From positions 28,013,795 through 28,077,794 of the forward strand of contig NC_092670.1 of the NCBI RefSeq assembly GCF_964355755.1: a stretch of DNA of 64,000 nucleotides, in the 5' to 3' direction. The first letter of the stretch is position 1; each line of letters opens with the position of its first letter. Made by a program: the position numbers and the translations under genes. The notes under the pieces were generated by a model that worked only from the letters and a program-made list of their open reading frames with translations, was not told where the DNA came from and ran no database searches. Source of the DNA: Antedon mediterranea. Taxonomy: Eukaryota > Echinodermata > Crinoidea > Comatulida > Antedonidae. Shown here piece by piece: positions 5,001 to 64,000 of the stretch.

Positions 5001-5240
5001 AATACTATATTAAGCTATTTTGTGTTCTTTGATGTTTTTATGTGAAAAGTTTTATCGAAATGCTCAAAATGGTCTAAAACGGTTTCTAATGTGATTTTAA
5101 GAACTTTGATGTTTTTATGTTAAAAACTTTTTTAGAAAATCACAAAATGGTCTAAAACGTCTCCAAATGCGATTTGAAGCAATTCTAAGCACTTTGGTGT
5201 TTTTATGTTAACACGTTTTTTCGAAAATCACAAAATGGTC
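2091..5240 (+). repeat. Core-like block in the left mosaic (offset ~8,192 to alpha-1)
   Basis: B spacings 959, 516, 428, 428 and 516 repeat the first five HORs of every alpha and beta unit. Marker variants agree: the CTAGTTTAAG monomer at 2597 corresponds to 10789, and TTAACACG near 5210 corresponds to 13401. The opening B at 2091 is of another subtype (TGTTGAAA, not TGTCAAAA), so similarity seems to start in its C monomer. After about 5,240-5,283 the sequence leaves the core order: alpha-1 goes on to CACAAAGTGG, whereas here it goes to a CACTTTTGTG monomer and then a CGATTTTAAGG monomer, as in the alpha tail. Confidence 0.85.
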
Positions 5241-5279
5241 TAAAACGTCTCCAAATGCGATTTGAAGCTATTCTAAGCA

Positions 5280-7623: not shown

Positions 7624-7670
7624 ATTCTAAGCACTTTGGTGTTTTTATGTTAACAAGTTTTTTCGAAAAT
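7624..7670 (+). other. Junction between irregular mosaic and regular 23.5-kb array
   Basis: The block 7104-7670 follows sequence like 1-567 (offset 7,103), including GCAATTC at 7623 which matches 520. From 7624 it agrees instead with 31109 onward (offset 23,485), while at 7671 it no longer matches the 1-567 block (C here, T at 568). The switch thus falls within 7624-7670, in an ordinary type A monomer rather than a B monomer. Confidence 0.75.
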
Positions 7671-8323
7671 CACAAAATGGTGTAAAACTTCTCCAAATAC
7701 GATTTTAAGCTATTCTAAGCAATTTGGTGTTTTTATGTTAACAAGTTTTTTCGAAAATCACAAAATGGTCTAAAACGTCTCCAAATGCGATTTGAAGCTA
7801 TTCTGTACACTTTGCTGTTTTGTGTGAATAATTTTTGTTGAAATGCTCAAAATGGTCAAAAACGTTTTTAAATACTATATTAAGCTATTTTGTGTTCTTT
7901 GATGTTTTTGTGTGAAAAGTTTTATCGAAATGCTCAAAATGGTCTAAAACAGTTTCTAATGTGATTTTAAGCACTTTGATGTTTTTATGTTAACAACTTT
8001 TTTAGAAAATCACAAAATGGTCTAAAACGTCTCCAAATGCGATTTGAAGCAATTCTAAGCACTTTGGTGCTTTTATGTTAACAAGTTTTTTCGAAAATCA
8101 CAAAATGGTATAAAACGTCTCCAAATGCGATTTGAAGCAATTCTAAGCACTTTGGTGTTTTTATGTTAACAAGTTTTTTCGAAAATCACAAAATGGTATA
8201 AAACGTCTCCAAATGCGATTTTAAGGTATTCTAAGCACTTTGGTGTTTTTATGTTAACAAGTTTTTTCGAAAATCACAAAATGGTCTAAAACGTCTCCAA
8301 ATGCGATTTGAAGCTATTCTGTA

Positions 8324-8410
8324 CACTTTGCTGTTTTGTGTGAATAATTTTTGTCGAAATGCTCAAAATGGTCAAAAACGTTTTTAAATACGATATTAAG
8401 CTATTTTGTG
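8324..8410 (+). repeat. Type B monomer, reference copy (87 bp)
   Basis: B is the divergent monomer that opens each punctuation pair. It begins CACTTTGCTG and differs from type A mainly in its first half: the TGTTAACA palindrome is replaced by TGTGTGAATA, and ATCACAAAATGG by TGCTCAAAATGG. Its right half reads AAAAACGTTTTTAAATAC and ends CTATTTTGTG. B is almost always entered from a type A monomer ending CTGTA rather than CTAAG; exceptions are 3566, 11757, 22910, 35243 and 46396, entered from CTAAG, and 17106, 28259, 40592 and 51745, entered from CTTTA. Subtypes are position-specific: TGTCGAAA with TACGAT, TGTCAAAA with TACTAT, TGTTGAAA, TGAGAATAA, and GAATATTTTTT. I counted 96 B starts. Confidence 0.95.
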
Positions 8411-8487
8411 CTCTTTGATGTTTTTGTGTGAAAAGTTTTATCGAAATGCTCAAAATGGTCTAAAACGGTTTCTAATGTGATTTTAAG
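8411..8487 (+). repeat. Type C monomer, reference copy (77 bp, short)
   Basis: C always follows B. It opens CTCTTTGATG or TTCTTTGATG and carries GTGTGAAAAGTTTTATCG where type A has the palindrome region. It ends GTGATTTTAAG and lacks about 11 bp at its 3' end relative to type A (the CTATTCTAAG part), so it is 77 bp. It shares the TGCTCAAAATGG core with B, so B and C look like sister variants that diverged together from type A. A 3-bp longer form (AATGAAATGATTTT) occurs in specific units, for example near 854, 9486 and 19066. Confidence 0.95.
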
Positions 8488-8575
8488 CACTTTGATGTTT
8501 TTATGTTAACAACTTTTTTAGAAAATCACAAAATGGTCTAAAACGTCTCCAAATGCGATTTGAAGCAATTCTAAG
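8488..8575 (+). repeat. Type D monomer (88 bp) that usually follows B/C
   Basis: D is a type A derivative placed directly after most C monomers. It differs at CACTTTGATG (A for G) and at AACAACTTTTTTAGAAAA where type A has AACAAGTTTTTTCGAAAA, which destroys the TTTTCGAAAA palindrome and its CpG. Two sub-versions recur: one continues AATCACAAAATGGTC and ends GAAGCAATTCTAAG; the other continues AATTACAAAATGGTG. In some HORs (for example after 20390) C is followed by a plain type A monomer instead. The B-C-D order makes a conserved ~252-bp module. Confidence 0.93.
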
Positions 8576-8663
8576 CACTTTGGTGTTTTTATGGTAACGA
8601 GTTTTTTTGAATATCACAAAATGGTCTAAAACGTCTCCAAATGCGATTTGAAGCTATTCTAAG
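8576..8663 (+). repeat. GGTAACGAG-variant monomer (88 bp), usually right after D
   Basis: In this variant the TGTTAACA palindrome becomes TGGTAACG, followed by AGTTTTTTTGAATATCAC, so both palindromes of the consensus are lost while length stays 88 bp. It recurs in fixed HOR slots, usually as the first or second monomer after D (for example near 3830, 4260, 12030 and 12450). A related version keeps GGTAACGAGTTATTTCGAAA and restores TTCGAA (for example near 4350, 10210 and 12540). Its positional fixity makes it a good marker for aligning HORs. Confidence 0.9.
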
Positions 8664-8894
8664 CACTTTGGTGTTTTTATGTTAACAAGTTTTTTCGAAA
8701 ATCACAAAATGGTGTAAAACGTCTCCAAATGCGATTTGAAGCTATTCTAAGCACTTTGGTGTTATTATGTTAACAAGTTTTTTCGAAAATCACAAATTGG
8801 TCTAAAACGTCTCCAAATGCGATTTGAAGCTATTTTAAGCACTTTGGTGTTTTTGTGTAACCAAGTTTTTTCGAAAATCACAAAAGGGTCTAAA

Positions 8895-9006
8895 ATGTCT
8901 CAAAATGCGATTTGAAGCTATTCTGTACACTTTGATGTTTTTTTGTTAACATGTCTCAAAATGCGATTTGAAGCTATTCTGTACACTTTGATGTTTTTTT
9001 GTTAAC
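8895..9006 (+). repeat. 56-bp partial-monomer tandem duplication, beta-0
   Basis: A 56-bp stretch that opens ATGTCTCAAAATGCGATTTG and ends TTTGTTAAC occurs twice in direct succession, at 8895-8950 and 8951-9006. It spans the end of the TTGTGTAACC-type monomer and the start of the following one, so the array loses its 88-bp phase here. This explains why the HOR from 8324 is 1,012 bp (164 + 9 x 88 + 56). It is the only partial monomer that recurs as a fixed part of a unit, apart from the short C type. Confidence 0.93.
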
Positions 9007-10282
9007 AAGTTTTTTCGAAAGTCACAAAATGGTCTAAAACGTCTCCAAATGCGATTTGAAGCTATTCTAAGCACTTTGGTGTTTTTATGTTAACAAGTTT
9101 TTTCGAAAATCACAAAATGGTGTAAAACGTCTCCAAATGCGATTTGAAGCTATTCTAAGCACTTTGGTGTTTTTATGTTAACAAGTTTTTTCGAAAATCA
9201 CAAAATGGTGTAAAACTTCTCCAAATACGATTTTAAGCTATTCTAAGCAATTTGGTGTTTTTATGTTAACAAGTTTTTTCGAAAATCACAAAATGGTCTA
9301 AAACGTCTCCAAATGCGATTTGAAGCTATTCTGTACACTTTGCTGTTTTGTGTGAATAATTTTTGTCAAAATGCTCAAAATGGTCAAAAACGTTTTTAAA
9401 TACTATATTAAGCTATTTTGTGTTCTTTGATGTTTTTGTGTGAAAAGTTTTATCGAAATGCTCAAAATGGTCTAAAACGGTTTCTAATGAAATGATTTTA
9501 AGAACTTTGATGTTTTTATGTTAACAACTTTTTTAGAAAATCACAAAATGGTCTAAAACGTCTCCAAATGCGATTTGAAGCAATTCTAAGCACTTTGGTG
9601 TTTTTATGTTAACAAGTTTTTTCGAAAATCACAAAATGGTATAAAACGTCTCCAAATGCGATTTTAAGGTATTCTAAGCACTTTGGTGTTTTTATGTTAA
9701 CAAGTTTTTTCGAAAATCACAAAATGGTCTAAAACGTCTACAAATGCGATTTGAAGCTATTGTAAGCACTTTGGTGTTTTTATGTTAACAAGTTTTTTCG
9801 AAAATCACAAAATGGTCTAAAACGTCTCCAAATGCGATTTGAAGCTATTCTGTACACTTTGCTGTTTTGTGTGAATAATTTTTGTCGAAATGCTCAAAGT
9901 GGTCAAAAACGTTTTTAAATACGATATTAAGCTATTTTGTGCTCTTTGATGTTTTTGTGTGAAAAGTTTTATCGAAATGCTCAAAATGGTCTAAAACGGT
10001 TTCTAATGTGATTTTAAGCACTTTGATGTTTTTATGTTAACAACTTTTTTAGAAAATCACAAAATGGTCTAAAACGTCTCCAAATGCGATTTGAAGTAAT
10101 TCTAAGCACTTTGGTGTTTTTATGGTAACGAGTTTTTTTGAATATCACAAAATGGTCTAAAATTTCTCCAAATGCGATTTGAAGCTTTTCTAAGCACTTT
10201 AGTGTTTTTATGGTAACGAGTTATTTCGAAAATCACAAAATGGTCTAAAACGTCTCCAAATGCGATTTGAAGCTATTCTGTA

Positions 10283-13200
10283 CACTTTGCTGTTTTGTGT
10301 GAATATTTTTTGTCAAAATGCTCAAAATGGTCAAAAACGTTTTTTAATACTATATTAAGCTATTTTGTGCTCTTTGATGTTTTTGTGTGAAAAGTTTTAT
10401 CGAAATGCTCAAAATGGTCTAAAACGGTTTCTAATGTGATTTTAAGCACTTTGATGTTTTTATGTTAACAACTTTTTTAGAAAATTACAAAATGGTGTAA
10501 AACGTCTCCAAATGCGATTTGAAGCTATTCTAAGCACTTTGGTGTTTTTATGGTAACGAGTTTTTTTGAATATCACAAAATGGTCTAAAATGTCTCCAAA
10601 TGCGATTTGAAGCTTTTCTAAGCACTTTGGTGTTTTTATGTTAACAAGTTTTTTCGAAAATCACAAAATGGTCTAAAACGTCTCCAAATGTGATTTGAAG
10701 CTATTCTAAACACTTTGGTGTTTTTATGTTAACAAGTTTTTTCGAAAATCACAAATTGGTCTAAAACGTCTCCAAATGCGATTTGAAGCTAGTTTAAGCA
10801 CTTTGGTGTTTTTGTGTAACCAAGTTTTTTCGAAAATCACAAAAGGGTCTAAAATGTCTCAAAATGCGATTTGAAGCTATTCTGTACACTTTGATGTTTT
10901 TTTTGTTAACAAGTTTTTTCGAAAGTCACAAAATGGTCTAAAACGTCTCCAAATGCGATTTGAAGCTATTCTAAGCACTTTGGTGTTTTTATGTTAACAA
11001 GTTTTTTCGAAAATCACAAAATGGTGTAAAACGTCTCCAAATGCGATTTGAAGCTATTCTAAGCATTTGGTGTTTTTATGTTAACAAGTTTTTTCGAAAA
11101 TCACAAAATGGTGTAAAACGTCTCCAAATGCGATTTTAAGCTATTCTAAGCAATTTGGTGTTCTTTTATGTTAACAAGTTTTTTCGAAAATCACAAAATG
11201 GTCTAAAACGTCTCCAAATGCGATTTGAAGCTATTCTGTACACTTTGCTGTTTTGTGAGAATAATTTTTGTCGAAATGCTCAAAATGGTCAAAAACGTTT
11301 TTAAATACGATATTAAGCTATTTTGTGCTCTTTGATGTTTTTGTGTGAAAAGTTTTATCGAAATGCTCAAAATGGTCTAAAACGGTTTCTAATGTGATTT
11401 TAAGCACTTTGGTGTTTTTATGTTAACAAGTTTTTTCGAAAATCACAAAATGGTCTAAAACGTCTCCAAATGTGATTTGAAGCTATTCTAAACACTTTGG
11501 TGTTTTTATGTTAACAAGTTTTTTCGAAAATCACAAATTGGTCTAAAACGTCTCCAAATGCGATTTGAAGCTATTTTAAGCACTTTGGTGTTTTTGTGTA
11601 ACCAAGTTTTTTCGAAAATCACAAAAGGGTCTAAAATGTCTCAAAATGCGATTTGAAGCTATTCTGTACACTTTGATGTTTTTTTGTTAACAAGTTTTTT
11701 CGAAAGTCACAAAATGGTCTAAAACGTCTCCAAATGCGATTTGAAGCTATTCTAAGCACTTTGCTGTTTTGTGTGAATAATTTTTGTCGAAATGCTCAAA
11801 ATGGTCAAAAACGTTTTTAAATACGATATTAAGCTATTTTGTGCTCTTTGATGTTTTTGTGTGAAAAGTTTTATCGAAATGCTCAAAATGGTCTAAAACG
11901 GTTTCTAATGTGATTTTAAGCACTTTGATGTTTTTATGTTAACAACTTTTTTAGAAAATCACAAAATGGTCTAAAACGTCTCCAAATGCGATTTGAAGCA
12001 ATTCTAAGCACTTTGGTGTTTTTATGGTAACGAGTTTTTTTGAATATCACAAAATGGTCTAAAATGTCTCCAAATGCGATTTGAAGCTTTTCTAAGCACA
12101 TTGGTGTTTTTATGTTAACAAGTTTTTTCGAAAATCACAAAATGGTCTAAAACGTCTCCAAATGCGATTTGAAGCTATTCTGTACACTTTGCTGTTTTGT
12201 GTGAATAATTTTTGTCGAAATGCTCAAAATGGTCAAAAACGTTTTTAAATACGATATTAAGCTATTTTGTGCTCTTTTATGTTTTTGTGTGAAAAGTTTT
12301 ATCGAAATGCTCAAAATGGTCTAAAACGGTTTCTAATGTGATTTTAAGCACTTTGATGTTTTTATGTTAACAACTTTTTTAGAAAATCACAAAATGGTCT
12401 AAAACGTCTCCAAATGCGATTTGAAGCAATTCTAAGCACTTTGGTGTTTTTATGGTAACGAGTTTTTTTGAATATCACAAAATGGTCTAAAATGTCTCCA
12501 AATGCGATTTGAAGCTTTTCTAAGCACTTTGGTGTTTTTATGGTAACGAGTTATTTCGAAAATCACAAAATGGTCTAAAACGTCTCCAAATGCGATTTGA
12601 AGCTATTCTGTACACTTTGCTGTTTTGTGTGAATAATTTTTGTCAAAATGCTCAAAATGGTCAAAAACGTTTTTAAATACTATATTAAGCTATTTTGTGC
12701 TCTTTGATGTTTTTGTGTGAAAAGTTTTATCGAAATGCTCAAAATGGTCTAAAACGGTTTCTAATGTGATTTTAAGCACTTTGATGTTTTTATGTTAACA
12801 ACTTTTTTAGAAAATTACAAATTGGTGTAAAACGTCTCCAAATGCGATTTGAAGCTATTCTAAGCAATTTGGTGTTTTTATGTTAACAAGTTTTTTCGAA
12901 AATCACAAAATGGTCTAAAACGTCTCCAAATGCGATTTGAAGCTATTCTAAGCACTTTTGTGTTTTTATGTTAACAAGTTTTTTCGAAAATCACAAAATG
13001 GTCTAAAATGTCTCCAAATGCGATTTGAAGCTTTTCTAAGCACTTTTGTGTTTTTATGTTTACAAGTTTTTTCGAAAATCACAAAATGGTCTAAAACGTC
13101 TCCAAATGCGATTTGAAGCTATTCTGTACACTTTGCTGTTTTGTGTGAATAATTTTTGTCAAAATGCTCAAAATGGTCAAAAACGTTTTTAAATACTATA

Positions 13201-16200
13201 TTAAGCTATTTTGTGTTCTTTGATGTTTTTATGTGAAAAGTTTTATCGAAATGCTCAAAATGGTCTAAAACGGTTTCTAATGTGATTTTAAGAACTTTGA
13301 TGTTTTTATGTTAAAAACTTTTTTAGAAAATCACAAAATGGTCTAAAACGTCTCCAAATGCGATTTGAAGCAATTCTAAGCACTTTGGTGTTTTTATGTT
13401 AACACGTTTTTTCGAAAATCACAAAATGGTCTACAACGTCTCCAAATGCGATTTGAAGCTATTCTAAGCACTTTGGTGTTTTTATGTTAACAAGTTTTTT
13501 CGAAAATCACAAAGTGGTATAAAACGTCTCCAAATGCGATTTTAATGTATTCTAAGCACTTTGGTGTTTTTATGTTAACAAGTTTTTTCGAAAATCACAA
13601 AATGGTCTAAAACGTCTCCAAATGTGATTTGAAGCTATTCTAAACACTTTGGTGTTTTTATGTTAACAAGTTTTTTCGAAAATCACAAATTGGTCTAAAA
13701 CGTCTCCAAATGCGATTTGAAGCTATTTTAAGCACTTTTGTGTTTTTGTGTAACCAAGTTTTTTCGAAAATCACAAAAGGGTCTAAAATGTCTCAAAATG
13801 CGATTTGAAGCTATTCTGTACACTTTGATGTTTTTATGTTAACAACTTTTTTAGAAAATCACAAAATGGTCTAAAACGTCTCCAAATGCGATTTGAAGCA
13901 ATTCTAAGCACTTTGGTGTTTTTATGGTAACGAGTTTTTTTGAATATCACAAAATGGTCTAAAATGTCTCCAAATGCGATTTGAAGCTTTTCTAAGCACG
14001 TTGGTGTTTTTATGTTTACAAGTTTTTTCGAAAATCACAAAATGGTCTAAAACGGCTCCAAATACGATTTGAAGCTATTCTAAGCACTTTGGTGTTTTTA
14101 TGTTAACAAGTTTTTTCGAAAATCACAAAATGGTCTAAAACGTCTCCAAATGCGATTTGAAGCTATTCTAAGCACTTTGGTGTTTTTATGTTAACAAGTT
14201 TTTTCGAAAATCACAAAATGGTGTAAAACGTCTCCAAATGCGATTTGAAGCTATTCTAAGCAATTTTGTGTTTTTATGTTAACAAGTTTTTTCGAAAATC
14301 ACAAAATGGTCTAAAACGTCTCCAAATGCGATTTGAAGCTATTCTAAGCACTTTTGTGTTTTTATGTTAACAAGTTTTTTCGAAAATCACAAAATGGTCT
14401 AAAATGTCTCAAAATGCGATTTGAAGCTATTCTGTACACTTTGCTGTTTTGTGTGAATAATTTTTGTCAAAATGCTCAAAATGGTCAAAAACGTTTTTAA
14501 ATACTATATTAAGCTATTTTGTGTTCTTTGATGTTTTTGTGTGAAAAGTTTTTTCGAAATGCTCAAAATGGTCTAAAACGGTTTCTAATGTGATTTTAAG
14601 CACTTTGATGTTTTTATGTTAACAACTTTTTTAGAAAATTACAAAATGGTCTAAAACGTCTCCAAATGCAATTTGAAGCAATTCTAAGCACTTTGGTGTT
14701 TTTATGTTAACAAGTTTTTTCGAAAATCACAAAATGGTCTAAAACGTCTCCAAATGCTATTTGAAGCTATTCTGTACACTTTGCTGTTTTGTGTGAATAA
14801 TTTTTGTTGAAATGCTCAAAATGGTAAAAAACGTTTTTAAATACGATATTAAGCTATTTTGTGCTCTTTGATGTTTTTGTGTGAAAAGTTTTATCGAAAT
14901 GCTCAAAATGGTCTAAAACGGTTTCTAATGTGATTTTAAGCACTTTGGTGTTTTTATGTTAACAAGTTTTTTCGAAAATCACAAAATGGTCTAAAATATC
15001 TCCAAATGCGATTTGAAGCTTTTCTAAGCACTTTGGTGTTTTTATGTTAACAAGTTTTTTCGAAAATCACAAAATGGTCTAAAACGTCTCCAAATGTGAT
15101 TTGAAGCTATTCTAAACACTTTGGTGTTTTTATGTTAACAAGTTTTTTCGAAAATCACAAATTGGTCTAAAACGTCTCCAAATGCGATTTTAAGCAATTC
15201 TAAGCACTTTGGTGTTTTTATGTTAAAAAGTTTTTTTCGAAAATCACAAAATGGTCTAAAACCTCTCCAAATGCGATTTGAAGCTATTCTGTACACTTTG
15301 CTGTTTTGTGTGAATAATTTTTGTCGAAATGCTCAAAATGGTCAAAAACGTTTTTAAATACGATATTAAGCTATTTTGTGCTCTTTGATGTTTTTGTGTG
15401 AAAAGTTTTATCGAAATGCTCAAAATGGTCTAAAACGGTTTCTAATGTGATTTTAAGCACTTTGGTGTTTTTATGTTAACAAGTTTTTTCGAAAATCACA
15501 AAATGGTCTAAAACGTCTCCAAATGTGATTTGAAGCTATTTTAAACACTTTGGTGTTTTTATGTTAATAAGTTTTTTCGAAAATCACAAATTGGTCTAAA
15601 ACGTCTCCAAATGCGATTTGAAGCTTTTCTAAGCACTTTGGTGTTTTTATGGTAACGAGTTATTTCGAAAATCACAAAATGGTCTAAAACGTCTCCAAAT
15701 GCGATTTGAAGCTATTCTGTACACTTTGCTGTTTTGTGTGAATAATTTTTGTCAAAATGCTCAAAATGGTCAAAAACGTTTTTAAATACTATATTAAGCT
15801 ATTTTGTGTTCTTTGATGTTTTTATGTGAAAAGTTTTATCGAAATGCTCAAAATGGTCTAAAACGGTTTCTAATGTGATTTTAAGAACTTTGATGTTTTT
15901 ATGTTAAAAACTTTTTTAGAAAATCACAAAATGGTCTAAAACGTCTCCAAATGCGATTTGAAGCAATTCTAAGCACTTTGGTGTTTTTATGTTAACACGT
16001 TTTTTCGAAAATCACAAAATGGTCTACAACGTCTCCAAATGCGATTTGAAGATATTCTAAGCACTTTGGTGTTTTTATGTTAACAAGTTTTTTCGAAAAT
16101 CACAAAGTGGTATAAAACGTCTCCAAATGCGATTTTAAGGTATTCTAAGCACTTTGGTGTTTTTATGTTAACAAGTTTTTTAGAAAATCACAAAATGGTC

Positions 16201-19200
16201 TAAAACGTCTCCAAATGCGATTTGAAGCAATTCTAAGCACTTTGGTGTTTTTATGGTAACGAGTTTTTTTGAATATCACAAAATGGTCTAAAATGTCTCC
16301 AAATGCGATTTGAAGCTTTTCTAAGCACTTTGGTGTTTTTATGTTAACAAGTTTTTTCGAAAATCACAAAATGGTCTAAAACGTCTCCAAATGCGATTTG
16401 AAGCTATTCTGTACACTTTGCTGTTTTGTGTGAATAATTTTTGTCGAAATGCTCAAAATGGTCAAAAACGTTTTTAAATACGATATTAAGCTATTTTGTG
16501 CTCTTTGATGTTTTTGTGTGAAAAGTTTTATCGAAATGCTCAAAATGGTCTAAAACGGTTTCTAATGTGATTTTAAGCACTTTGATGTTTTTATGTTAAC
16601 AACTTTTTTAGAAAATCACAAAATGGTCTAAAACGTCTCCAAATGCGATTTGAAGCTTTTCTAAGCACTTTTGTGTTTTTATGTTTACAAGTTTTTTCGA
16701 AAATCACAAAATGGTCTAAAACGGCTCCAAATACGATTTGAAGCTATTCTAAGCACTTTGGTGTTTTTATGTTAACAAGTTTTTTCGAAAATCACAAAAT
16801 GGTCTAAAACGTCTCCAAATGCGATTTGAAGCTATTCTAAGCACTTTGGTGTTTTTATGTTAACAAGTTTTTTCGAAAATCACAAAATGGTGTAAAACGT
16901 CTCCAAATGCGATTTGAAGCTATTCTAAGCAATTTTGTGTTTTTATGTTAACAAGTTTTTTCGAAAATCACAAAATGGTCTAAAACGTCTCCAAATGCGA
17001 TTTGAAGCTATTCTAAGCACTTTTGTGTTTTTATGTTAACAAGTTTTTTCGAAAATCACAAAATTGTCTAAAATGTCTCAAAATGCGATTTGAAGCTATT
17101 CTTTACACTTTGCTGTTTTGTGTGAATAATTTTTGTCAAAATGCTCAAAATGGTCAAAAACGTTTTTAAATACTATATTAAGCTATTTTGTGTTCTTTGA
17201 TGTTTTTGTGTGAAAAGTTTTTTCGAAATGCTCAAAATGGTCTAAAACGGTTTCTAATGTGATTTTAAGCACTTTGATGTTTTTATGTTAACAACTTTTT
17301 TAGAAAATTACAAAATGGTCTAAAACGTCTCCAAATGCGATTTGAAGCAATTCTAAGCACTTTGGTGTTTTTATGTTAACAAGTTTTTTCGAAAATCACA
17401 AAATGGTCTAAAACGTCTCCAAATGCGATTTGAAGCTATTCTGTACACTTTGCTGTTTTGTGTGAATAATTTTTGTTGAAATGCTCAAAATGGTCAAAAA
17501 CGTTTTTAAATACGATATTAAGCTATTTTGTGCTCTTTGATGTTTTTGTGTGAAAAGTTTTATCGAAATGCTCAAAATGGTCTAAAACGGTTTCTAATGT
17601 GATTTTAAGCACTTTGGTGTTTTTATGTTAACAAGTTTTTTCGAAAATCACAAAATGGTCTAAAATGTCTCCAAATGCGATTTGAAGCTTTTCTAAGCAC
17701 TTTGGTGTTTTTATGTTAACAAGTTTTTTCGAAAATCACAAAATGGTCTAAAACGTCTCCAAATGTGATTTGAAGCTATTCTAAACACTTTGGTGTTTTT
17801 ATGTTAACAAGTTTTTTCGAAAATCACAAATTGGTCTAAAACGTCTCCAAATGCGATTTGAAGCTATTTTAAGCACTTTGGTGTTTTTGTGTAACCAAGT
17901 TTTTTCGAAAATCACAAAAGGGTCTAAAATGTCTCAAAATGCGATTTGAAGCTATTCTGTACACTTTGATGTTTTTTTGTTAACAAGTTTTTTCGAAAGT
18001 CACAAAATGGTCTAAAAAGTCTCCAAATGCGATTTGAAGCTATTCTAAGCACTTTGGTGTTTTTATGTTAACAAGTTTTATCGAAAATCACAAAATGGTG
18101 TAAAACGTCTCCAAATGCGATTTGAAGCTATTCTAAGCACTTTGGTTTTTTATGTTAACAAGTTTTTTCGAAAATCACAAAATGGTGTAAAACGTCTCCA
18201 AATGCGATTTTAAGCTATTCTAAGCAATTTGGTGTTTTTATGTTAACAAGTTTTTTCGAAAATCACAAAATGGTCTAAAACGTCTCCAAATGCGATTTGA
18301 AGCTATTCTGTACACTTTGCTGTTTTGTGAGAATAATTTTTGTCGAAATGCTCAAAATGGTCAAAAACGTTTTTAAATACGATATTAAGCTATTTTGTGC
18401 TCTTTGATGTTTTTGTGTGAAAAGTTTTATCGAAATGCTCAAAATGGTCTAAAACGGTTTCTAATGTGATTTTAAGCACTTTGATGTTTTTATGTTAACA
18501 ACTTTTTTAGAAAATTACAAAATGGTGTAAAACGTCTCCAAATGCGATTTGAAGCTATTCTAAGCAATTTCGTGTTTTTATGTTAACAAGTTTTTTCTAA
18601 AATCACAAAATGGTCTAAAATGTCTCCAAATGCGATTTTAAGGTATTCTAAGCACTTTGGTGTTTTTATGTTAACAAGTTTTTTCGAAAATCACAAAATG
18701 GTCTAAAACGTCTACAAATGCGATTTGAAGCTATTCTAAGCACTTTGGTGTTTTTATGTTAACAAGTTTTTTCGAAAATCACAAAATGGTATAAAACGTC
18801 TCCAAATGCGATTTGAAGATTTTCTAAGCACTTTGGTGTTTTTATGTTTACAAGTTTTTTCGAAAATCACAAAATGGTCTAAAACGTCTCCAAATGCGAT
18901 TTGAAGCTATTCCGTACACTTTGCTGTTTTGTGTGAATAATTTTGTCAAAATGCTCAAAATGGTCAAAAACGTTTTTAAATACTATATTAAGCTATTTTG
19001 TGTTCTTTGATGTTTTTGTGTGAAAAGTTTTATCGAAATGCTCAAAATGGTCTAAAACGGTTTCTAATGAAATGATTTTAAGAACTTTGATGTTTTTATG
19101 TTAACAACTTTTTTAGAAAATCACAAAATGGTCTAAAACGTCTCCAAATGCGATTTGAAGCAATTCTAAGCACTTTGGTGTTTTTATGTTAACAAGTTTT

Positions 19201-33400: not shown

Positions 33401-33767
33401 TAAATACGATATTAAGCTATTTTGTGCTCTTTGATGTTTTTGTGTGAAAAGTTTTATCGAAATGCTCAAAATGGTCTAAAACGGTTTCTAATGTGATTTT
33501 AAGCACTTTGATGTTTTTATGTTAACAACTTTTTTAGAAAATCACAAAATGGTCTAAAACGTCTCCAAATGCGATTTGAAGTAATTCTAAGCACTTTGGT
33601 GTTTTTATGGTAACGAGTTTTTTTGAATATCACAAAATGGTCTAAAATTTCTCCAAATGCGATTTGAAGCTTTTCTAAGCACTTTAGTGTTTTTATGGTA
33701 ACGAGTTATTTCGAAAATCACAAAATGGTCTAAAACGTCTCCAAATGCGATTTGAAGCTATTCTGTA
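21435..33767 (+). repeat. Beta-1 unit (12,333 bp, 19 HORs)
   Basis: B starts: 21435, 22394, 22910, 23338, 23766, 24282, 25590, 25930, 26447, 26875, 27567, 28259, 28599, 29467, 30159, 31293, 31809, 32821, 33340. Spacings: 959, 516, 428, 428, 516, 1308, 340, 517, 428, 692, 692, 340, 868, 692, 1134, 516, 1012, 519, 428. The first 13 match the alpha core; the last six (4,301 bp) are the beta tail. The tail holds the CACTTTAGTG monomer (33680), AATGAAATG at 30308 and 32971, and the 56-bp partial monomer. Copy-private changes include TTAACACTTTTTTTCG near 27150, TTAAAAACTATATT near 30211, GGTTTAAAACG near 30640 and CTTTTCTGTAC near 32404. Confidence 0.95.
32380..32491 (+). repeat. 56-bp partial-monomer tandem duplication, beta-1
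   Basis: Same structure as the beta-0 copy, 23,485 bp downstream: the two 56-bp halves are 32380-32435 and 32436-32491. The first half carries a private change (CTTTTCTGTAC for CTATTCTGTAC, near 32404), so the halves are no longer identical. Confidence 0.93.
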
Positions 33768-53900: not shown

Positions 53901-56900
53901 CTTTGGTGTTTTTATGTTAACAAGTTTTTTCGAAAATCACAAAATGGTATAAAACGTCTCCAAATGCGATTTTAAGGTATTCTAAGCACTTTGGTGATTT
54001 TATGTTAACAAGTTTTTTCGAAAATCACAAAATGGTCTAAAACGTCTACAAATGCGATTTGAAGCTATTCTAAGCACTTTGGTGTTTTTATGTTAACAAG
54101 TTTTTTCGAAAATCACAAAATGGTATAAAACGTCTCCAAATGCGATTTTAAGCTATTCTAAGCAATTTGGTGTTTTTATGTTAACAAGTTTTTTCGAAAA
54201 TCACAAAATGGTCGAAAATGTCACAAAATGCGATTTGAAGCTATTCTAAGCACTTTGGTGTTATTATGTTAACAAGTTTTTTCGAAAATCACAAATTGGT
54301 CTAAAACGTCTCCAAATGCGATTTGAAGCTATTTTAAGCACTTTGGTGTTTTTGTGTAACCAAGTTTTTTCGAAAATCACAAAAGGGTCTAAAATGTCTC
54401 AAAATGCGATTTGAAGCTATTCTGTACACTTTGATGTTTTTTTGTTAACAAGTTTTTTCGAAAGTCACAAAATGGTCTAAAACGTCTCCAAATGCGATTT
54501 GAAGCTATTCTAAGCACTTTGGTGTTTTTATGTTAACAAGTTTTTTCGAAAATCACAAAATGGTGTAAAACGTCTCCAAATGCGATTTGAAGCTATTCTA
54601 AGCACTTTGGTGTTTTTATGTTAACAAGTTTTTTCGAAAATCACAAAATGGTGTAAAACTTCTCCAAATACGATTTTAAGCTATTCTAAGCAATTTGGTG
54701 TTTTTATGTTAACAAGTTTTTTCGAAAATCACAAAATGGTCTAAAACGTCTCCAAATGCGATTTGAAGCTATTCTGTACACTTTGCTGTTTTGTGTGAAT
54801 AATTTTTGTTGAAATGCTCAAAATGGTCAAAAACGTTTTTAAATACTATATTAAGCTATTTTGTGTTCTTTGATGTTTTTGTGTGAAAAGTTTTATCGAA
54901 ATGCTCAAAATGGTCTAAAACAGTTTCTAATGTGATTTTAAGCACTTTGATGTTTTTATGTTAACAACTTTTTTAGAAAATCACAAAATGGTCTAAAACG
55001 TCTCCAAATGCGATTTGAAGCAATTCTAAGCACTTTGGTGCTTTTATGTTAACAAGTTTTTTCGAAAATCACAAAATGGTATAAAACGTCTCCAAATGCG
55101 ATTTGAAGCAATTCTAAGCACTTTGGTGTTTTTATGTTAACAAGTTTTTTCGAAAATCACAAAATGGTATAAAACGTCTCCAAATGCGATTTTAAGGTAT
55201 TCTAAGCACTTTGGTGTTTTTATGTTAACAAGTTTTTTCGAAAATCACAAAATGGTCTAAAACGTCTCCAAATGCGATTTGAAGCTATTCTGTACACTTT
55301 GCTGTTTTGTGTGAATAATTTTTGTCGAAATGCTCAAAATGGTCAAAAACGTTTTTAAATACGATATTAAGCTATTTTGTGCTCTTTGATGTTTTTGTGT
55401 GAAAAGTTTTATCGAAATGCTCAAAATGGTCTAAAACGGTTTCTAATGTGATTTTAAGCACTTTGATGTTTTTATGTTAACAACTTTTTTAGAAAATCAC
55501 AAAATGGTCTAAAACGTCTCCAAATGCGATTTGAAGCAATTCTAAGCACTTTGGTGTTTTTATGGTAACGAGTTTTTTTGAATATCACAAAATGGTCTAA
55601 AACGTCTCCAAATGCGATTTGAAGCTATTCTAAGCACTTTGGTGTTTTTATGTTAACAAGTTTTTTCGAAAATCACAAAATGGTGTAAAACGTCTCCAAA
55701 TGCGATTTGAAGCTATTCTAAGCACTTTGGTGTTATTATGTTAACAAGTTTTTTCGAAAATCACAAATTGGTCTAAAACGTCTCCAAATGCGATTTGAAG
55801 CTATTTTAAGCACTTTGGTGTTTTTGTGTAACCAAGTTTTTTCGAAAATCACAAAAGTGTCTAAAATGTCTCAAAATGCGATTTGAAGCTATTCTGTACA
55901 CTTTGATGTTTTTTTGTTAACATGTCTCAAAATGCGATTTGAAGCTATTCTGTACACTTTGATGTTTTTTTGTTAACAAGTTTTTTCGAAAGTCACAAAA
56001 TGGTCTAAAACGTCTCCAAATGCGATTTGAAGCTATTCTAAGCACTTTGGTGTTTTTATGTTAACAAGTTTTTTCGAAAATCACAAAATGGTGTAAAACG
56101 TCTCCAAATGCGATTTGAAGCTATTCTAAGCACTTTGGTGTTTTTATGTTAACAAGTTTTTTCGAAAATCACAAAATGGTGTAAAACTTCTCCAAATACG
56201 ATTTTAAGCTATTCTAAGCAATTTGGTGTTTTTATGTTAACAAGTTTTTTCGAAAATCACAAAATGGTCTAAAACGTCTCCAAATGCGATTTGAAGCTAT
56301 TCTGTACACTTTGCTGTTTTGTGTGAATAATTTTTGTCAAAATGCTCAAAATGGTCAAAAACGTTTTTAAATACTATATTAAGCTATTTTGTGTTCTTTG
56401 ATGTTTTTGTGTGAAAAGTTTTATCGAAATGCTCAAAATGGTCTAAAACGGTTTCTAATGAAATGATTTTAAGAACTTTGATGTTTTTATGTTAACAACT
56501 TTTTTAGAAAATCACAAAATGGTCTAAAACGTCTCCAAATGCGATTTGAAGCAATTCTAAGCACTTTGGTGTTTTTATGTTAACAAGTTTTTTCGAAAAT
56601 CACAAAATGGTATAAAACGTCTCCAAATGCGATTTTAAGGTATTCTAAGCACTTTGGTGTTTTTATGTTAACAAGTTTTTTCGAAAATCACAAAATGGTC
56701 TAAAACGTCTACAAATGCGATTTGAAGCTATTGTAAGCACTTTGGTGTTTTTATGTTAACAAGTTTTTTCGAAAATCACAAAATGGTCTAAAACGTCTCC
56801 AAATGCGATTTGAAGCTATTCTGTACACTTTGCTGTTTTGTGTGAATAATTTTTGTCGAAATGCTCAAAGTGGTCAAAAACGTTTTTAAATACGATATTA

Positions 56901-57253
56901 AGCTATTTTGTGCTCTTTGATGTTTTTGTGTGAAAAGTTTTATCGAAATGCTCAAAATGGTCTAAAACGGTTTCTAATGTGATTTTAAGCACTTTGATGT
57001 TTTTATGTTAACAACTTTTTTAGAAAATCACAAAATGGTCTAAAACGTCTCCAAATGCGATTTGAAGTAATTCTAAGCACTTTGGTGTTTTTATGGTAAC
57101 GAGTTTTTTTGAATATCACAAAATGGTCTAAAATTTCTCCAAATGCGATTTGAAGCTTTTCTAAGCACTTTAGTGTTTTTATGGTAACGAGTTATTTCGA
57201 AAATCACAAAATGGTCTAAAACGTCTCCAAATGCGATTTGAAGCTATTCTGTA
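44921..57253 (+). repeat. Beta-2 unit (12,333 bp, 19 HORs)
   Basis: B starts: 44921, 45880, 46396, 46824, 47252, 47768, 49076, 49416, 49933, 50361, 51053, 51745, 52085, 52953, 53645, 54779, 55295, 56307, 56826. Spacings match beta-1 throughout. Private or recent changes: AAAACGGTTTTAAATAC near 47825, CGAAATTCAC at 52281 (also in the duplicated tail at 57790 but not at the beta-1 equivalent), TTTTTTCAAAAATC at 52458 and CACAAAAGTGTC at 55858. The segment from 51745 to 57253 is the apparent source of the 5,509-bp extra copy that follows. Confidence 0.95.
55866..55977 (+). repeat. 56-bp partial-monomer tandem duplication, beta-2
   Basis: Halves are 55866-55921 and 55922-55977. It lies a further 23,486 bp on from the beta-1 copy. 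The monomer just before it carries the private CACAAAAGTGTC change at 55858. Confidence 0.93.
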
Positions 57254-57276
57254 CACTTTGCTGTTTTGTGTGAATA
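57252..57276 (+). other. Unequal-crossover junction (5,509-bp duplication)
   Basis: Up to 57251 the sequence follows a beta end (CTATTCTGTACAC), whereas the equivalent B entry at 51742 reads CTATTCTTTACAC. From 57277 it follows the 51745-type B (GAATAATTTTTGTC), whereas a true beta-to-alpha boundary has GAATATTTTTT. The switch therefore lies between these two informative positions, inside the first ~25 bp of a B monomer. This is the product expected when two B monomers about 5.5 kb apart mispair and recombine; replication-based mechanisms would look the same. Confidence 0.85.
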
Positions 57277-60200
57277 ATTTTTGTCAAAATGCTCAAAATG
57301 GTCAAAAACGTTTTTAAATACTATATTAAGCTATTTTGTGTTCTTTGATGTTTTTGTGTGAAAAGTTTTTTCGAAATGCTCAAAATGGTCTAAAACGGTT
57401 TCTAATGTGATTTTAAGCACTTTGATGTTTTTATGTTAACAACTTTTTTAGAAAATTACAAAATGGTCTAAAACGTCTCCAAATGCGATTTGAAGCAATT
57501 CTAAGCACTTTGGTGTTTTTATGTTAACAAGTTTTTTCGAAAATCACAAAATGGTCTAAAACGTCTCCAAATGCGATTTGAAGCTATTCTGTACACTTTG
57601 CTGTTTTGTGTGAATAATTTTTGTTGAAATGCTCAAAATGGTCAAAAACGTTTTTAAATACGATATTAAGCTATTTTGTGCTCTTTGATGTTTTTGTGTG
57701 AAAAGTTTTATCGAAATGCTCAAAATGGTCTAAAACGGTTTCTAATGTGATTTTAAGCACTTTGGTGTTTTTATGTTAACAAGTTTTTTCGAAATTCACA
57801 AAATGGTCTAAAATGTCTCCAAATGCGATTTGAAGCTTTTCTAAGCACTTTGGTGTTTTTATGTTAACAAGTTTTTTCGAAAATCACAAAATGGTCTAAA
57901 ACGTCTCCAAATGTGATTTGAAGCTATTCTAAACACTTTGGTGTTTTTATGTTAACAAGTTTTTTCGAAAATCACAAATTGGTCTAAAACGTCTCCAAAT
58001 GCGATTTGAAGCTATTTTAAGCACTTTGGTGTTTTTGTGTAACCAAGTTTTTTCGAAAATCACAAAAGGGTCTAAAATGTCTCAAAATGCGATTTGAAGC
58101 TATTCTGTACACTTTGATGTTTTTTTGTTAACAAGTTTTTTCGAAAGTCACAAAATGGTCTAAAAAGTCTCCAAATGCGATTTGAAGCTATTCTAAGCAC
58201 TTTGGTGTTTTTATGTTAACAAGTTTTATCGAAAATCACAAAATGGTGTAAAACGTCTCCAAATGCGATTTGAAGCTATTCTAAGCACTTTGGTGTTTTT
58301 ATGTTAACAAGTTTTTTCGAAAATCACAAAATGGTGTAAAACGTCTCCAAATGCGATTTTAAGCTATTCTAAGCAATTTGGTGTTTTTATGTTAACAAGT
58401 TTTTTCGAAAATCACAAAATGGTCTAAAACGTCTCCAAATGCGATTTGAAGCTATTCTGTACACTTTGCTGTTTTGTGAGAATAATTTTTGTCGAAATGC
58501 TCAAAATGGTCAAAAACGTTTTTAAATACGATATTAAGCTATTTTGTGCTCTTTGATGTTTTTGTGTGAAAAGTTTTATCGAAATGCTCAAAATGGTCTA
58601 AAACGGTTTCTAATGTGATTTTAAGCACTTTGATGTTTTTATGTTAACAACTTTTTTAGAAAATTACAAAATGGTGTAAAACGTCTCCAAATGCGATTTG
58701 AAGCTATTCTAAGCAATTTCGTGTTTTTATGTTAACAAGTTTTTTCGAAAATCACAAAATGGTCTAAAACGTCTCCAAATGCGATTTGAAGCTATTCTAA
58801 GCACTTTTGTGTTTTTATGTTAACAAGTTTTTTCGAAAATCACAAAATGGTCTAAAATGTCTCCAAATGCGATTTTAAGGTATTCTAAGCACTTTGGTGT
58901 TTTTATGTTAACAAGTTTTTTCGAAAATCACAAAATGGTCTAAAACGTCTACAAATGCGATTTGAAGCTCTTCTAAGCACTTTGGTGTTTTTATGTTAAC
59001 AAGTTTTTTCGAAAATCACAAAATGGTATAAAACGTCTCCAAATGCGATTTGAAGATTTTCTAAGCACTTTGGTGTTTTTATGTTTACAAGTTTTTTCGA
59101 AAATCACAAAATGGTCTAAAACGTCTCCAAATGCGATTTGAAGCTATTCTGTACACTTTGCTGTTTTGTGTGAATAATTTTGTCAAAATGCTCAAAATGG
59201 TCAAAAACGTTTTTAAATACTATATTAAGCTATTTTGTGTTCTTTGATGTTTTTGTGTGAAAAGTTTTATCGAAATGCTCAAAATGGTCTAAAACGGTTT
59301 CTAATGAAATGATTTTAAGAACTTTGATGTTTTTATGTTAACAACTTTTTTAGAAAATCACAAAATGGTCTAAAACGTCTCCAAATGCGATTTGAAGCAA
59401 TTCTAAGCACTTTGGTGTTTTTATGTTAACAAGTTTTTTCGAAAATCACAAAATGGTATAAAACGTCTCCAAATGCGATTTTAAGGTATTCTAAGCACTT
59501 TGGTGATTTTATGTTAACAAGTTTTTTCGAAAATCACAAAATGGTCTAAAACGTCTACAAATGCGATTTGAAGCTATTCTAAGCACTTTGGTGTTTTTAT
59601 GTTAACAAGTTTTTTCGAAAATCACAAAATGGTATAAAACGTCTCCAAATGCGATTTTAAGCTATTCTAAGCAATTTGGTGTTTTTATGTTAACAAGTTT
59701 TTTCGAAAATCACAAAATGGTCGAAAATGTCACAAAATGCGATTTGAAGCTATTCTAAGCACTTTGGTGTTATTATGTTAACAAGTTTTTTCGAAAATCA
59801 CAAATTGGTCTAAAACGTCTCCAAATGCGATTTGAAGCTATTTTAAGCACTTTGGTGTTTTTGTGTAACCAAGTTTTTTCGAAAATCACAAAAGGGTCTA
59901 AAATGTCTCAAAATGCGATTTGAAGCTATTCTGTACACTTTGATGTTTTTTTGTTAACAAGTTTTTTCGAAAGTCACAAAATGGTCTAAAACGTCTCCAA
60001 ATGCGATTTGAAGCTATTCTAAGCACTTTGGTGTTTTTATGTTAACAAGTTTTTTCGAAAATCACAAAATGGTGTAAAACGTCTCCAAATGCGATTTGAA
60101 GCTATTCTAAGCACTTTGGTGTTTTTATGTTAACAAGTTTTTTCGAAAATCACAAAATGGTGTAAAACTTCTCCAAATACGATTTTAAGCTATTCTAAGC

Positions 60201-62762
60201 AATTTGGTGTTTTTATGTTAACAAGTTTTTTCGAAAATCACAAAATGGTCTAAAACGTCTCCAAATGCGATTTGAAGCTATTCTGTACACTTTGCTGTTT
60301 TGTGTGAATAATTTTTGTTGAAATGCTCAAAATGGTCAAAAACGTTTTTAAATACTATATTAAGCTATTTTGTGTTCTTTGATGTTTTTGTGTGAAAAGT
60401 TTTATCGAAATGCTCAAAATGGTCTAAAACAGTTTCTAATGTGATTTTAAGCACTTTGATGTTTTTATGTTAACAACTTTTTTAGAAAATCACAAAATGG
60501 TCTAAAACGTCTCCAAATGCGATTTGAAGCAATTCTAAGCACTTTGGTGCTTTTATGTTAACAAGTTTTTTCGAAAATCACAAAATGGTATAAAACGTCT
60601 CCAAATGCGATTTGAAGCAATTCTAAGCACTTTGGTGTTTTTATGTTAACAAGTTTTTTCGAAAATCACAAAATGGTATAAAACGTCTCCAAATGCGATT
60701 TTAAGGTATTCTAAGCACTTTGGTGTTTTTATGTTAACAAGTTTTTTCGAAAATCACAAAATGGTCTAAAACGTCTCCAAATGCGATTTGAAGCTATTCT
60801 GTACACTTTGCTGTTTTGTGTGAATAATTTTTGTCGAAATGCTCAAAATGGTCAAAAACGTTTTTAAATACGATATTAAGCTATTTTGTGCTCTTTGATG
60901 TTTTTGTGTGAAAAGTTTTATCGAAATGCTCAAAATGGTCTAAAACGGTTTCTAATGTGATTTTAAGCACTTTGATGTTTTTATGTTAACAACTTTTTTA
61001 GAAAATCACAAAATGGTCTAAAACGTCTCCAAATGCGATTTGAAGCAATTCTATACACTTTGGTGTTTTTATGGTAACGAGTTTTTTTGAATATCACAAA
61101 ATGGTCTAAAACGTCTCCAAATGCGATTTGAAGCTATTCTAAGCACTTTGGTGTTTTTATGTTAACAAGTTTTTTCGAAAATCACAAAATGGTGTAAAAC
61201 GTCTCCAAATGCGATTTGAAGCTATTCTAAGCACTTTGGTGTTATTATGTTAACAAGTTTTTTCGAAAATCACAAATTGGTCTAAAACGTCTCCAAATGC
61301 GATTTGAAGCTATTTTAAGCACTTTGGTGTTTTTGTGTAACCAAGTTTTTTCGAAAATCACAAAAGGGTCTAAAATGTCTCAAAATGCGATTTGAAGCTA
61401 TTCTGTACACTTTGATGTTTTTTTGTTAACATGTCTCAAAATGCGATTTGAAGCTATTCTGTACACTTTGATGTTTTTTTGTTAACAAGTTTTTTCGAAA
61501 GTCACAAAATGGTCTAAAACGTCTCCAAATGCGATTTGAAGCTATTCTAAGCACTTTGGTGTTTTTATGTTAACAAGTTTTTTCGAAAATCACAAAATGG
61601 TGTAAAACGTCTCCAAATGCGATTTGAAGCTATTCTAAGCACTTTGGTGTTTTTATGTTAACAAGTTTTTTCGAAAATCACAAAATGGTGTAAAACTTCT
61701 CCAAATACGATTTTAAGCTATTCTAAGCAATTTGGTGTTTTTATGTTAACAAGTTTTTTCGAAAATCACAAAATGGTCTAAAACGTCTCCAAATGCGATT
61801 TGAAGCTATTCTGTACACTTTGCTGTTTTGTGTGAATAATTTTTGTCAAAATGCTCAAAATGGTCAAAAACGTTTTTAAATACTATATTAAGCTATTTTG
61901 TGTTCTTTGATGTTTTTGTGTGAAAAGTTTTATCGAAATGCTCAAAATGGTCTAAAACGGTTTCTAATGAAATGATTTTAAGAACTTTGATGTTTTTATG
62001 TTAACAACTTTTTTAGAAAATCACAAAATGGTCTAAAACGTCTCCAAATGCGATTTGAAGCAATTCTAAGCACTTTGGTGTTTTTATGTTAACAAGTTTT
62101 TTCGAAAATCACAAAATGGTATAAAACGTCTCCAAATGCGATTTTAAGGTATTCTAAGCACTTTGGTGTTTTTATGTTAACAAGTTTTTTCGAAAATCAC
62201 AAAATGGTCTAAAACGTCTACAAATGCGATTTGAAGCTATTGTAAGCACTTTGGTGTTTTTATGTTAACAAGTTTTTTCGAAAATCACAAAATGGTCTAA
62301 AACGTCTCCAAATGCGATTTGAAGCTATTCTGTACACTTTGCTGTTTTGTGTGAATAATTTTTGTCGAAATGCTCAAAGTGGTCAAAAACGTTTTTAAAT
62401 ACGATATTAAGCTATTTTGTGCTCTTTGATGTTTTTGTGTGAAAAGTTTTATCGAAATGCTCAAAATGGTCTAAAACGGTTTCTAATGTGATTTTAAGCA
62501 CTTTGATGTTTTTATGTTAACAACTTTTTTAGAAAATCACAAAATGGTCTAAAACGTCTCCAAATGCGATTTGAAGTAATTCTAAGCACTTTGGTGTTTT
62601 TATGGTAACGAGTTTTTTTGAATATCACAAAATGGTCTAAAATTTCTCCAAATGCGATTTGAAGCTTTTCTAAGCACTTTAGTGTTTTTATGGTAACGAG
62701 TTATTTCGAAAATCACAAAATGGTCTAAAACGTCTCCAAATGCGATTTGAAGCTATTCTGTA
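57254..62762 (+). repeat. Extra 5,509-bp copy of the beta-2 tail (recent segmental duplication)
   Basis: B starts: 57254, 57594, 58462, 59154, 60288, 60804, 61816, 62335, with spacings 340, 868, 692, 1134, 516, 1012, 519, 428. These repeat the last eight spacings of beta-2 (51745 onward). Every marker I checked lies exactly 5,509 bp from its beta-2 partner: CGAAATTCAC 52281/57790, CAATTTCGTG 53205/58714, AATGAAATG 53794/59303 and 56457/61966, GGTCGAAAATG 54210/59719, CACTTTAGTG 57166/62675. I noticed only a few differences between the copies: 52458, 55858 and the pair 61054-61055 (CTATACAC for CTAAGCAC). A full alignment would be needed for an exact count. Confidence 0.94.
61375..61486 (+). 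repeat. 56-bp partial-monomer tandem duplication, in the extra beta tail
   Basis: Halves are 61375-61430 and 61431-61486, exactly 5,509 bp from the beta-2 copy. It lacks the change seen at 55858, so that change arose after the 5,509-bp duplication. Confidence 0.93.
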
Positions 62763-64000
62763 CACTTTGCTGTTTTGTGTGAATATTTTTTGTCAAAATG
62801 CTCAAAATGGTCAAAAACGTTTTTTAATACTATATTAAGCTATTTTGTGCTCTTTGATGTTTTTGTGTGAAAAGTTTTATCGAAATGCTCAAAATGGTCT
62901 AAAACGGTTTCTAATGTGATTTTAAGCACTTTGATGTTTTTATGTTAACAACTTTTTTAGAAAATTACAAAATGGTGTAAAACGTCTCCAAATGCGATTT
63001 GAAGCTATTCTAAGCACTTTGGTGTTTTTATGGTAACGAGTTTTTTTGAATATCACAAAATGGTCTAAAATGTCTCCAAATGCGATTTGAAGCTTTTCTA
63101 AGCACTTTGGTGTTTTTATGTTAACAAGTTTTTTCGAAAATCACAAAATGGTCTAAAACGTCTCCAAATGTGATTTGAAGCTATTCTAAACACTTTGGTG
63201 TTTTTATGTTAACAAGTTTTTTCGAAAATCACAAATTGGTCTAAAACGTCTCCAAATGCGATTTGAAGCTAGTTTAAGCACTTTGGTGTTTTTGTGTAAC
63301 CAAGTTTTTTCGAAAATCACAAAAGGGTCTAAAATGTCTCAAAATGCGATTTGAAGCTATTCTGTACACTTTGATGTTTTTTTTGTTAACAAGTTTTTTC
63401 GAAAGTCACAAAATGGTCTAAAACGTCTCCAAATGCGATTTGAAGCTATTCTAAGCACTTTGGTGTTTTTATGTTAACAAGTTTTTTCGAAAATCACAAA
63501 ATGGTGTAAAACGTCTCCAAATGCGATTTGAAGCTATTCTAAGCAATTTGGTGTTTTTATGTTAACAAGTTTTTTCGAAAATCACAAAATGGTGTAAAAC
63601 GTCTCCAAATGCGATTTTAAGCTATTCTAAGCAATTTGGTGTTCTTTTATGTTAACAAGTTTTTTCGAAAATCACAAAATGGTCTAAAACGTCTCCAAAT
63701 GCGATTTGAAGCTATTCTGTACACTTTGCTGTTTTGTGAGAATAATTTTTGTCGAAATGCTCAAAATGGTCAAAAACGTTTTTAAATACGATATTAAGCT
63801 ATTTTGTGCTCTTTGATGTTTTTGTGTGAAAAGTTTTATCGAAATGCTCAAAATGGTCTAAAACGGTTTCTAATGTGATTTTAAGCACTTTGGTGTTTTT
63901 ATGTTAACAAGTTTTTTCGAAAATCACAAAATGGTCTAAAACGTCTCCAAATGTGATTTGAAGCTATTCTAAACACTTTGGTGTTTTTATGTTAACAAGT
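62763..64000 (+). repeat. Alpha-3 unit, start only (cut by window end)
   Basis: B starts are 62763 and 63722 (spacing 959). The first B has the GAATATTTTTT form that marks alpha starts at 10283 and 33768. The CTAGTTTAAG monomer at 63269 lies where the 23,486-bp period plus the 5,509-bp insertion predicts (34274 + 23,486 + 5,509). Thus the regular order resumes directly after the duplication. The window ends inside the second HOR. Confidence 0.9.

What the first reader, a model, noticed from the sequence alone, without database searches (positions are those of the whole stretch)
7640..64000. Four-level satellite hierarchy with a 23,486-bp super-repeat
B-monomer spacings form an exact ordered series that repeats: 17 HORs (11,152-11,153 bp) then 19 HORs (12,333 bp), twice over. 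Markers such as CACTTTAGTG (10195, 33680, 57166) and CTAGTTTAAG (10789/34274, 21941/45427) give 23,485-23,486 bp every time. Classic centromeric HORs are usually a few kb or less; an alternating unit of 36 sub-HORs is unusually long and implies homogenisation acting on >20-kb tracts.
Basis: seen in the sequence. Interest (0 to 1): 0.75.

Follow-up and report, generated by a model that had tools for sequence, protein, structure and literature searches.

The report
Recent large duplications in satellite array
A megabase-scale stretch of repetitive DNA on one chromosome contains a few nearly identical 23-kilobase copies that look like recent large duplications; this is a big local example of how such arrays are known to grow, not a new level of organisation running through the array.

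Summary
The 23,486-bp spacing is real. From window position 7,624 to about 57,277 a block of 36 units (17 in 11,153 bp, then 19 in 12,333 bp) occurs 2.1 times. Copies differ at 15-16 sites in 23-26 kb. In 124 kb around the window a 20-kb tract at 99.9% or more exists at only three lags; in another 200 kb of the same array the best 20-kb tract is 71%.

It is not a regular array-wide level. The order over 124 kb is a-b-b-(14.2 kb, mostly other satellite)-a-b-a-b, with a 5,509-bp duplication in the last b. A marker of the shared 7.8-kb core occurs 11 times in the 354-Mb genome, all within 239 kb of one contig, at irregular spacings. The left 200 kb holds other tandem duplications of 2-10 kb, about two to three copies each.

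Best explanation: nested, in-phase, homology-driven tandem duplication (break-induced replication or unequal exchange) in a probably centromeric satellite, with recent events of at least 23 kb. A toy simulation gives such super-repeats in 50 of 60 windows when events reach 40 units, in 1 of 60 when they stop at 4. SuperHORs and layered expansion are known. Centromere function, species and read support could not be tested.

The parts
1..64000 (+). AT-rich satellite array: A monomers (mostly 88 bp) with a divergent B dimer (87 + 78 bp) every 2-20 A monomers
   Evidence: TRF 88-bp arrays 1-61431 and 61433-64000; GC 0.286-0.313 in 1-kb bins; monomer decomposition
7624..31108 (+). super-repeat copy U1 (36 HORs, 23,485 bp)
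   Evidence: exact-match diagonals 23,485/23,486; 16 differences to U2 in 26,200 bp
31109..54594 (+). super-repeat copy U2 (36 HORs, 23,486 bp)
54595..57277 (+). partial third copy (tail of the Yb block); the period ends here
   Evidence: diagonal 46,971 from 7624 and last long exact run of diagonal 23,486 ending at 57,276; mismatch at 57,277
10306..18146 (+). shared core block X, copy U1a (13 HORs, 7.84 kb)
18147..21458 (+). variable tail Ya (4 HORs); X+Ya = 17 HORs, 11,153 bp
21459..29299 (+). core block X, copy U1b
29300..33791 (+). variable tail Yb (6 HORs); X+Yb = 19 HORs, 12,333 bp
33792..41632 (+). core block X, copy U2a (reference copy in the variant table)
44945..52785 (+). core block X, copy U2b
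51769..57277 (+). first copy of the 5,509-bp (8-HOR) tandem duplication
   Evidence: diagonal 5,509; junction in 25 identical bp between homologous monomers
57278..62786 (+). second copy of the 5,509-bp tandem duplication, interrupting the 23.5-kb register
62787..64000 (+). start of a further X-like block; the match (99.2% over 2.8 kb from 62,250) ends soon after the window
   Evidence: diagonals 41,328 and 17,842
1..7623 (+). out-of-register satellite between super-repeat copies (part of a stretch that begins about 3.4-3.9 kb before the window)
8891..9007 (+). 56-bp out-of-phase duplication used as a Yb marker; also at 32376, 55862 and 61371
   Evidence: TRF; phase break

Best explanation
The window lies inside an AT-rich satellite array with matches spanning at least 0.95 Mb of one contig of a 354-Mb eukaryotic genome. 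The array grows by nested, in-phase tandem duplication. A 7.84-kb core (X) was duplicated with two different tails (Ya, Yb), giving an [X-Ya][X-Yb] block of 36 units. That block was then copied as a whole at least twice, in tracts of 23 kb or more, and other events (a 5.5-kb duplication, a 14-kb interruption) broke the order. Shown: the copies, their identity, the near absence of partial monomers, one homologous junction, and the local extent. Inferred: the copying step is homologous recombination, most likely break-induced replication (BIR) out of register on the sister chromatid, or unequal sister exchange. Inferred and untested: that the array is the chromosome's centromere. The super-repeat itself probably has no separate function.
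For: (1) Growth is in phase: of 1,434 monomer steps in the 124-kb core 13 have an unexpected length, and 12 of these are six copies of one 56-bp event; in the left 200 kb 12 of 2,313 do. The monomers at the 7,624 and 57,278 junctions have normal length. (2) The 5,509-bp junction falls in 25 identical bases inside homologous monomers (the last A-class monomer before a B dimer), with 92-97% identity on either side. (3) Three copies of the 23.5-kb block differ pairwise at 12, 15 and 19 sites in 23,480 bp. (4) Five shared variants, 3 in X and 2 in Yb, join copies UL and U2 against the intervening U1; none conflict among 16 variable X sites and 6 internal Yb sites (4 edge columns of the Yb table left out; the 4 Ya sites are all unique to UL and uninformative). 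So the block moved as a unit. (5) Tandem periods of 2.2, 3.4, 5.3, 8.3 and 9.8 kb, at about 2-2.9 copies, occur in the left 200 kb (top 45 of 332 blocks shown). (6) Simulated random tandem duplication/deletion gives a primitive period of 30 or more units in 50 of 60 windows with events up to 40 units, and in 1 of 60 with events up to 4.
Against: No reads were available, so the copies could be partly an assembly product. BIR and unequal exchange leave the same junction and were not separated. The simulation is a toy with a uniform size distribution and a relaxed detection rule; at its lowest mutation rate, events up to 20 units already gave 17 of 20 and up to 10 gave 3 of 20. Only one junction was inspected base by base. 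That monomer starts map to monomer starts at each lag follows largely from the identity of the copies and is not counted as separate evidence. Letters were held for 324 kb of the array, plus eight 4.2-kb loci.
Confidence: 0.8

Rival explanations
1. A stable, array-wide super-HOR of 36 units kept in order by homogenisation.
For: Two near-exact copies in the window and one more a-b pair 50 kb to the left of U1.
Against: The exact core marker occurs 11 times in the genome, within 239 kb, at irregular spacing; order a-b-b-insert-a-b-a-b; no 20-kb tract above 71% in the left 200 kb.
Confidence: 0.05
2. An assembly product: false tandem copies or two haplotypes laid end to end, which would also give copies about 0.05-0.08% apart.
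For: Copies are nearly identical over lengths at or above typical HiFi reads (recalled, not tested); the difference level resembles ordinary heterozygosity (inference).
Against: Variants are phased over the a and b halves and join non-adjacent copies; nested events with different junctions; tandem duplications of many sizes in the left 200 kb.
Confidence: 0.12
3. Many small events (1-4 units) and short gene conversions built the pattern without any large copying step.
For: In-frame indels of 1-31 monomers are reported for Arabidopsis, and simulations of such events with gene conversion are said to account for megabase-scale HOR structure (PMC12321929 section 8).
Against: 20-kb tracts at 99.9% or more with variants co-inherited across the block; simulation with events up to 4 units gave 1 of 60 windows, though without gene conversion.
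Confidence: 0.05
4. Excision as an extrachromosomal circle, rolling-circle copying and re-integration.
For: Would also give head-to-tail copies without partial monomers (inference).
Against: No direct evidence. Copy numbers of 2-3 and the interleaved insert fit in-place events better (inference).
Confidence: 0.05

Closest known systems
superHORs of human and orangutan alpha satellite (PMC8336445 and PMC13060124, passages; PMC12428378, abstract)
   Same: HORs arranged in recurring combinations that form a further repeat level; copies nearly identical
   Different: Different satellite (88-bp monomer, irregular A_n-B units); unit of 272 monomers/23.5 kb against 58mers of alpha satellite; only 2.1 copies in a row, so not the three or more in a row that PMC13060124 requires
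Layered expansion / saltatory amplification of centromeric satellites (PMC11062924, passages; PMC12321929, passages and section 8)
   Same: Recent, local, nearly identical blocks inside a more divergent array; large structural changes
   Different: Seen here in one assembly only; no methylation, CENP-A/CENH3 or haplotype data
Break-induced replication out of register in satellites (review PMC12321929, section 8)
   Same: Predicts duplication of one or more sets of repeats through homologous annealing, in frame
   Different: The indels cited there for Arabidopsis are 1-31 monomers; the periods here are 25 to 272 monomers, and 579 at the 49,991 lag

Membership tests
higher-order repeat (HOR) array | diverged monomers within a unit, near-identical copies of the unit | tested here: met
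   A, b and c consensus monomers alike at 69, 70 and 61 of 88 columns; copies of the large blocks about 99.9%
higher-order repeat (HOR) array | a fixed unit repeated many times in a row | tested here: not met
   A monomers per B dimer vary from 2 to 20; read by eye, no long series of units runs more than about three times in a row; tandem blocks have about 2-2.9 copies
superHOR | recurring combination of HORs forming a higher repeat | tested here: met
   17+19 HOR series twice in the window and once more to the left
superHOR (as annotated in PMC13060124) | n-mer of HORs (n 2-9) repeated at least three times in a row | tested here: not met
   36 HORs, 2.1 consecutive copies, then interruption; the third a-b copy is 50 kb away
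functional centromere | CENP-A/CENH3 occupancy or other kinetochore mark | not testable with these tools
   no chromatin data
functional centromere | one large satellite array per chromosome, on every chromosome | tested here: inconclusive
CENP-B-box satellite | 17-bp CENP-B box | tested here: not met
   best match has 5 mismatches in 324 kb, both strands (box recalled)

The most novel reading that the evidence does not exclude
Single recombination events in a satellite array copy tracts of 23 kb, and possibly 50-73 kb, intact and in phase, about nine times the largest of the 1-31-monomer events quoted for Arabidopsis centromeres, so long-tract break-induced replication is a main driver of array growth in this species.
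Probability: 0.4. Interest if true: 0.45.

Novelty: new member of a known kind. Interest (0 to 1): 0.25.

Why it matters
If the copies are real, this locus gives nested duplication events with readable junctions and phased variants. It is a compact case for asking how large the copying tracts in satellite arrays are, and whether BIR or unequal exchange makes them. It also warns that an exact long period seen in one window can be a couple of recent duplications rather than a new level of organisation.

Tried and rejected
Array-wide alternation: rejected by the marker map and the 20-kb lag scan. Strong stem in the monomer: the 88-bp consensus strand folds no better than shuffles (z +1.37; 188 of 200 shuffles fold at least as well), although a TTTTCGAAAA palindrome is present in 79% of 88-bp A monomers of the core. 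CENP-B box: no close match. Naming the satellite or species: a full-text search for six short stretches of the monomer found 0 papers; of two searches for 88-bp centromeric satellites one found 0 papers and the other listed 20 of 478, none of which I could connect to it from the listing. A MAFFT alignment of the seven X copies misaligned and was replaced by register-based comparison; I use only the short Ya/Yb tables at its end. The first simulation counted multiples of short periods and was replaced. In one search the identity column is meaningless for chained blocks whose diagonal shifts; searches are used for identity instead. U1 and U2 give 16 differences in 26,200 bp inside the block; blastn extended past the block ends gives 63 mismatches in 27,001. 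I first counted the whole-unit periods as evidence of in-phase growth; since identical copies match in phase by themselves, I replaced this by the monomer-length count.
Full report
What was checked. The window is C1:28,013,795-28,077,794 of an unnamed 354-Mb genome in 18 contigs. All of it is one satellite: 88-bp monomers in a head-to-tail array with GC about 0.30. Monomer decomposition gives A monomers (mostly 88 bp) and a B dimer (87 + 78 bp) with 2-20 A monomers between dimers. The three consensus monomers are alike at 69, 70 and 61 of 88 aligned columns (A-b, A-c, b-c), so B is a diverged relative of A.

The spacing is real. Exact-match diagonals show 23,485/23,486 bp from 7,624 to about 57,277, and two copies align over 26,200 bp with 16 differences. 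In units of the B dimer, the series 9 4 3 3 4 13 2 4 3 6 6 2 8 (block X, 7.84 kb) is followed alternately by 5 13 7 3 (Ya; 17 units, 11,153 bp) and 6 11 4 10 4 3 (Yb; 19 units, 12,333 bp).

The pattern is local. With 40 kb to the left and 20 kb to the right the order is a-b-b-[14.2 kb of mostly other satellite, ending in a Yb tail]-a-b-a-b, with a 5,509-bp (8-unit) tandem duplication in the last b and mostly different satellite after it. A 50-base marker of X occurs 11 times in the whole genome as an exact match, all on C1 between 27.919 and 28.158 Mb, with spacings 57,671, 11,153, 12,333, 26,505, 11,153, 12,333, 11,153, 72,312, 11,153 and 13,189; the reversed control gives none. In the 124-kb core a 20-kb tract of 99.9% or more exists only at lags 23,486, 49,991 and 73,477. 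In 200 kb of the same array from 27.54 Mb the best 20-kb tract at any lag of 1.5-60 kb is 70.9%, and the best 10-kb tract is 99.97% at lag 9,843. Core and left parts share only 6 of 248 distinct unit sequences, and the longest match found of a 23.5-kb unit to the left part is 3.9 kb at 99.1% (its list stops at 5,000 matches).

How the copies relate. Three copies of the a-b block, called UL (about 50 kb left of U1), U1 and U2, differ at 12 (UL-U2), 15 (U1-U2) and 19 (UL-U1) sites over 23,480 bp. Among 16 variable sites in the seven X copies, one joins ULa with U2a and two join ULb with U2b. Of 6 internal variable sites in four Yb copies, two join ULb with U2b; the 4 Ya sites are all unique to UL and say nothing; four edge columns of the Yb table were left out. 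All five informative sites say that UL and U2 are sisters although U1 lies between them. Variants are thus inherited together across the block, as expected if blocks of more than 20 kb were copied whole. This also argues, without proving it, against a simple assembly echo of the neighbouring copy.

Mechanism. Growth is in phase: of 1,434 monomer steps in the core only 13 have an unexpected length, 12 of them six copies of one 56-bp event, and of 2,313 steps in the left part 12 do; the monomers holding the 7,624 and 57,278 junctions are of normal length. The one junction read base by base, at 57,278, lies in 25 identical bases between two homologous monomers, with 92-97% identity around it. That is what homologous, out-of-register copying leaves. 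Break-induced replication and unequal sister exchange both fit; a 2025 review favours the former (PMC12321929; passages, section 8). In a toy model of random tandem duplication and deletion, windows of 500 units showed a primitive period of at least 30 units twice over in 1 of 60 runs with events up to 4 units, 3 of 60 up to 10, 25 of 60 up to 20, 50 of 60 up to 40 and 52 of 60 up to 80. So no special ordering principle is needed, but events of about 10-25 kb or more probably are.

Comparison with the literature. superHORs are described for human centromeres (PMC8336445, passages; PMC13060124, passages: recurring HOR combinations fill about a third to a half of the chromosome 8, 9 and 15 arrays) and for orangutan (PMC12428378, abstract: 58mer). 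Evolutionary layers and saltatory amplification are described in PMC11062924 (passages). The review cites Arabidopsis mutation-accumulation indels of 1-31 monomers; the periods here are 25 to 272 monomers, and 579 at the 49,991 lag. I therefore file this as a new, large, local example of a known kind. Whether a 23.5-kb superHOR of any satellite is already in print I cannot say.

What is not known. The species, the presence of the satellite on other chromosomes and the centromere identity remain open: the whole-genome search for the B dimer and for histones did not complete. Read support is the main open point: copies 0.05-0.08% apart over 23 kb could in principle be haplotypes laid end to end.

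Noticed in passing
C1:28,472,687-28,504,085: At the right end of the mapped array most listed matches lie on the minus strand, with three on the plus strand, which suggests inverted blocks near that edge (capped list).
   Followed up: no
window 8891-9007, 32376-32492, 55862-55978, 61371-61487: A 56-bp out-of-phase tandem duplication inside the Yb block, carried along in later duplications (six copies in the core); it makes 12 of the 13 phase breaks there.
   Followed up: partly
L033 (window 64,581-72,500): A 3,736-bp (4-unit) tandem duplication; the core's two runs of 20 A monomers, the longest seen, lie to the right of the 5,509-bp duplication.
   Followed up: no
window -1,681 to 4,263 and 74,859 to 80,803: A 5.9-kb segment of the insert left of the super-repeat recurs right of it at 99.7% (lag 76,540), so the same other satellite flanks the super-repeat on both sides.
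   Followed up: no
A monomer, core: A TTTTCGAAAA palindrome in 79% of 88-bp A monomers, but the single strand folds no better than shuffles.
   Followed up: partly
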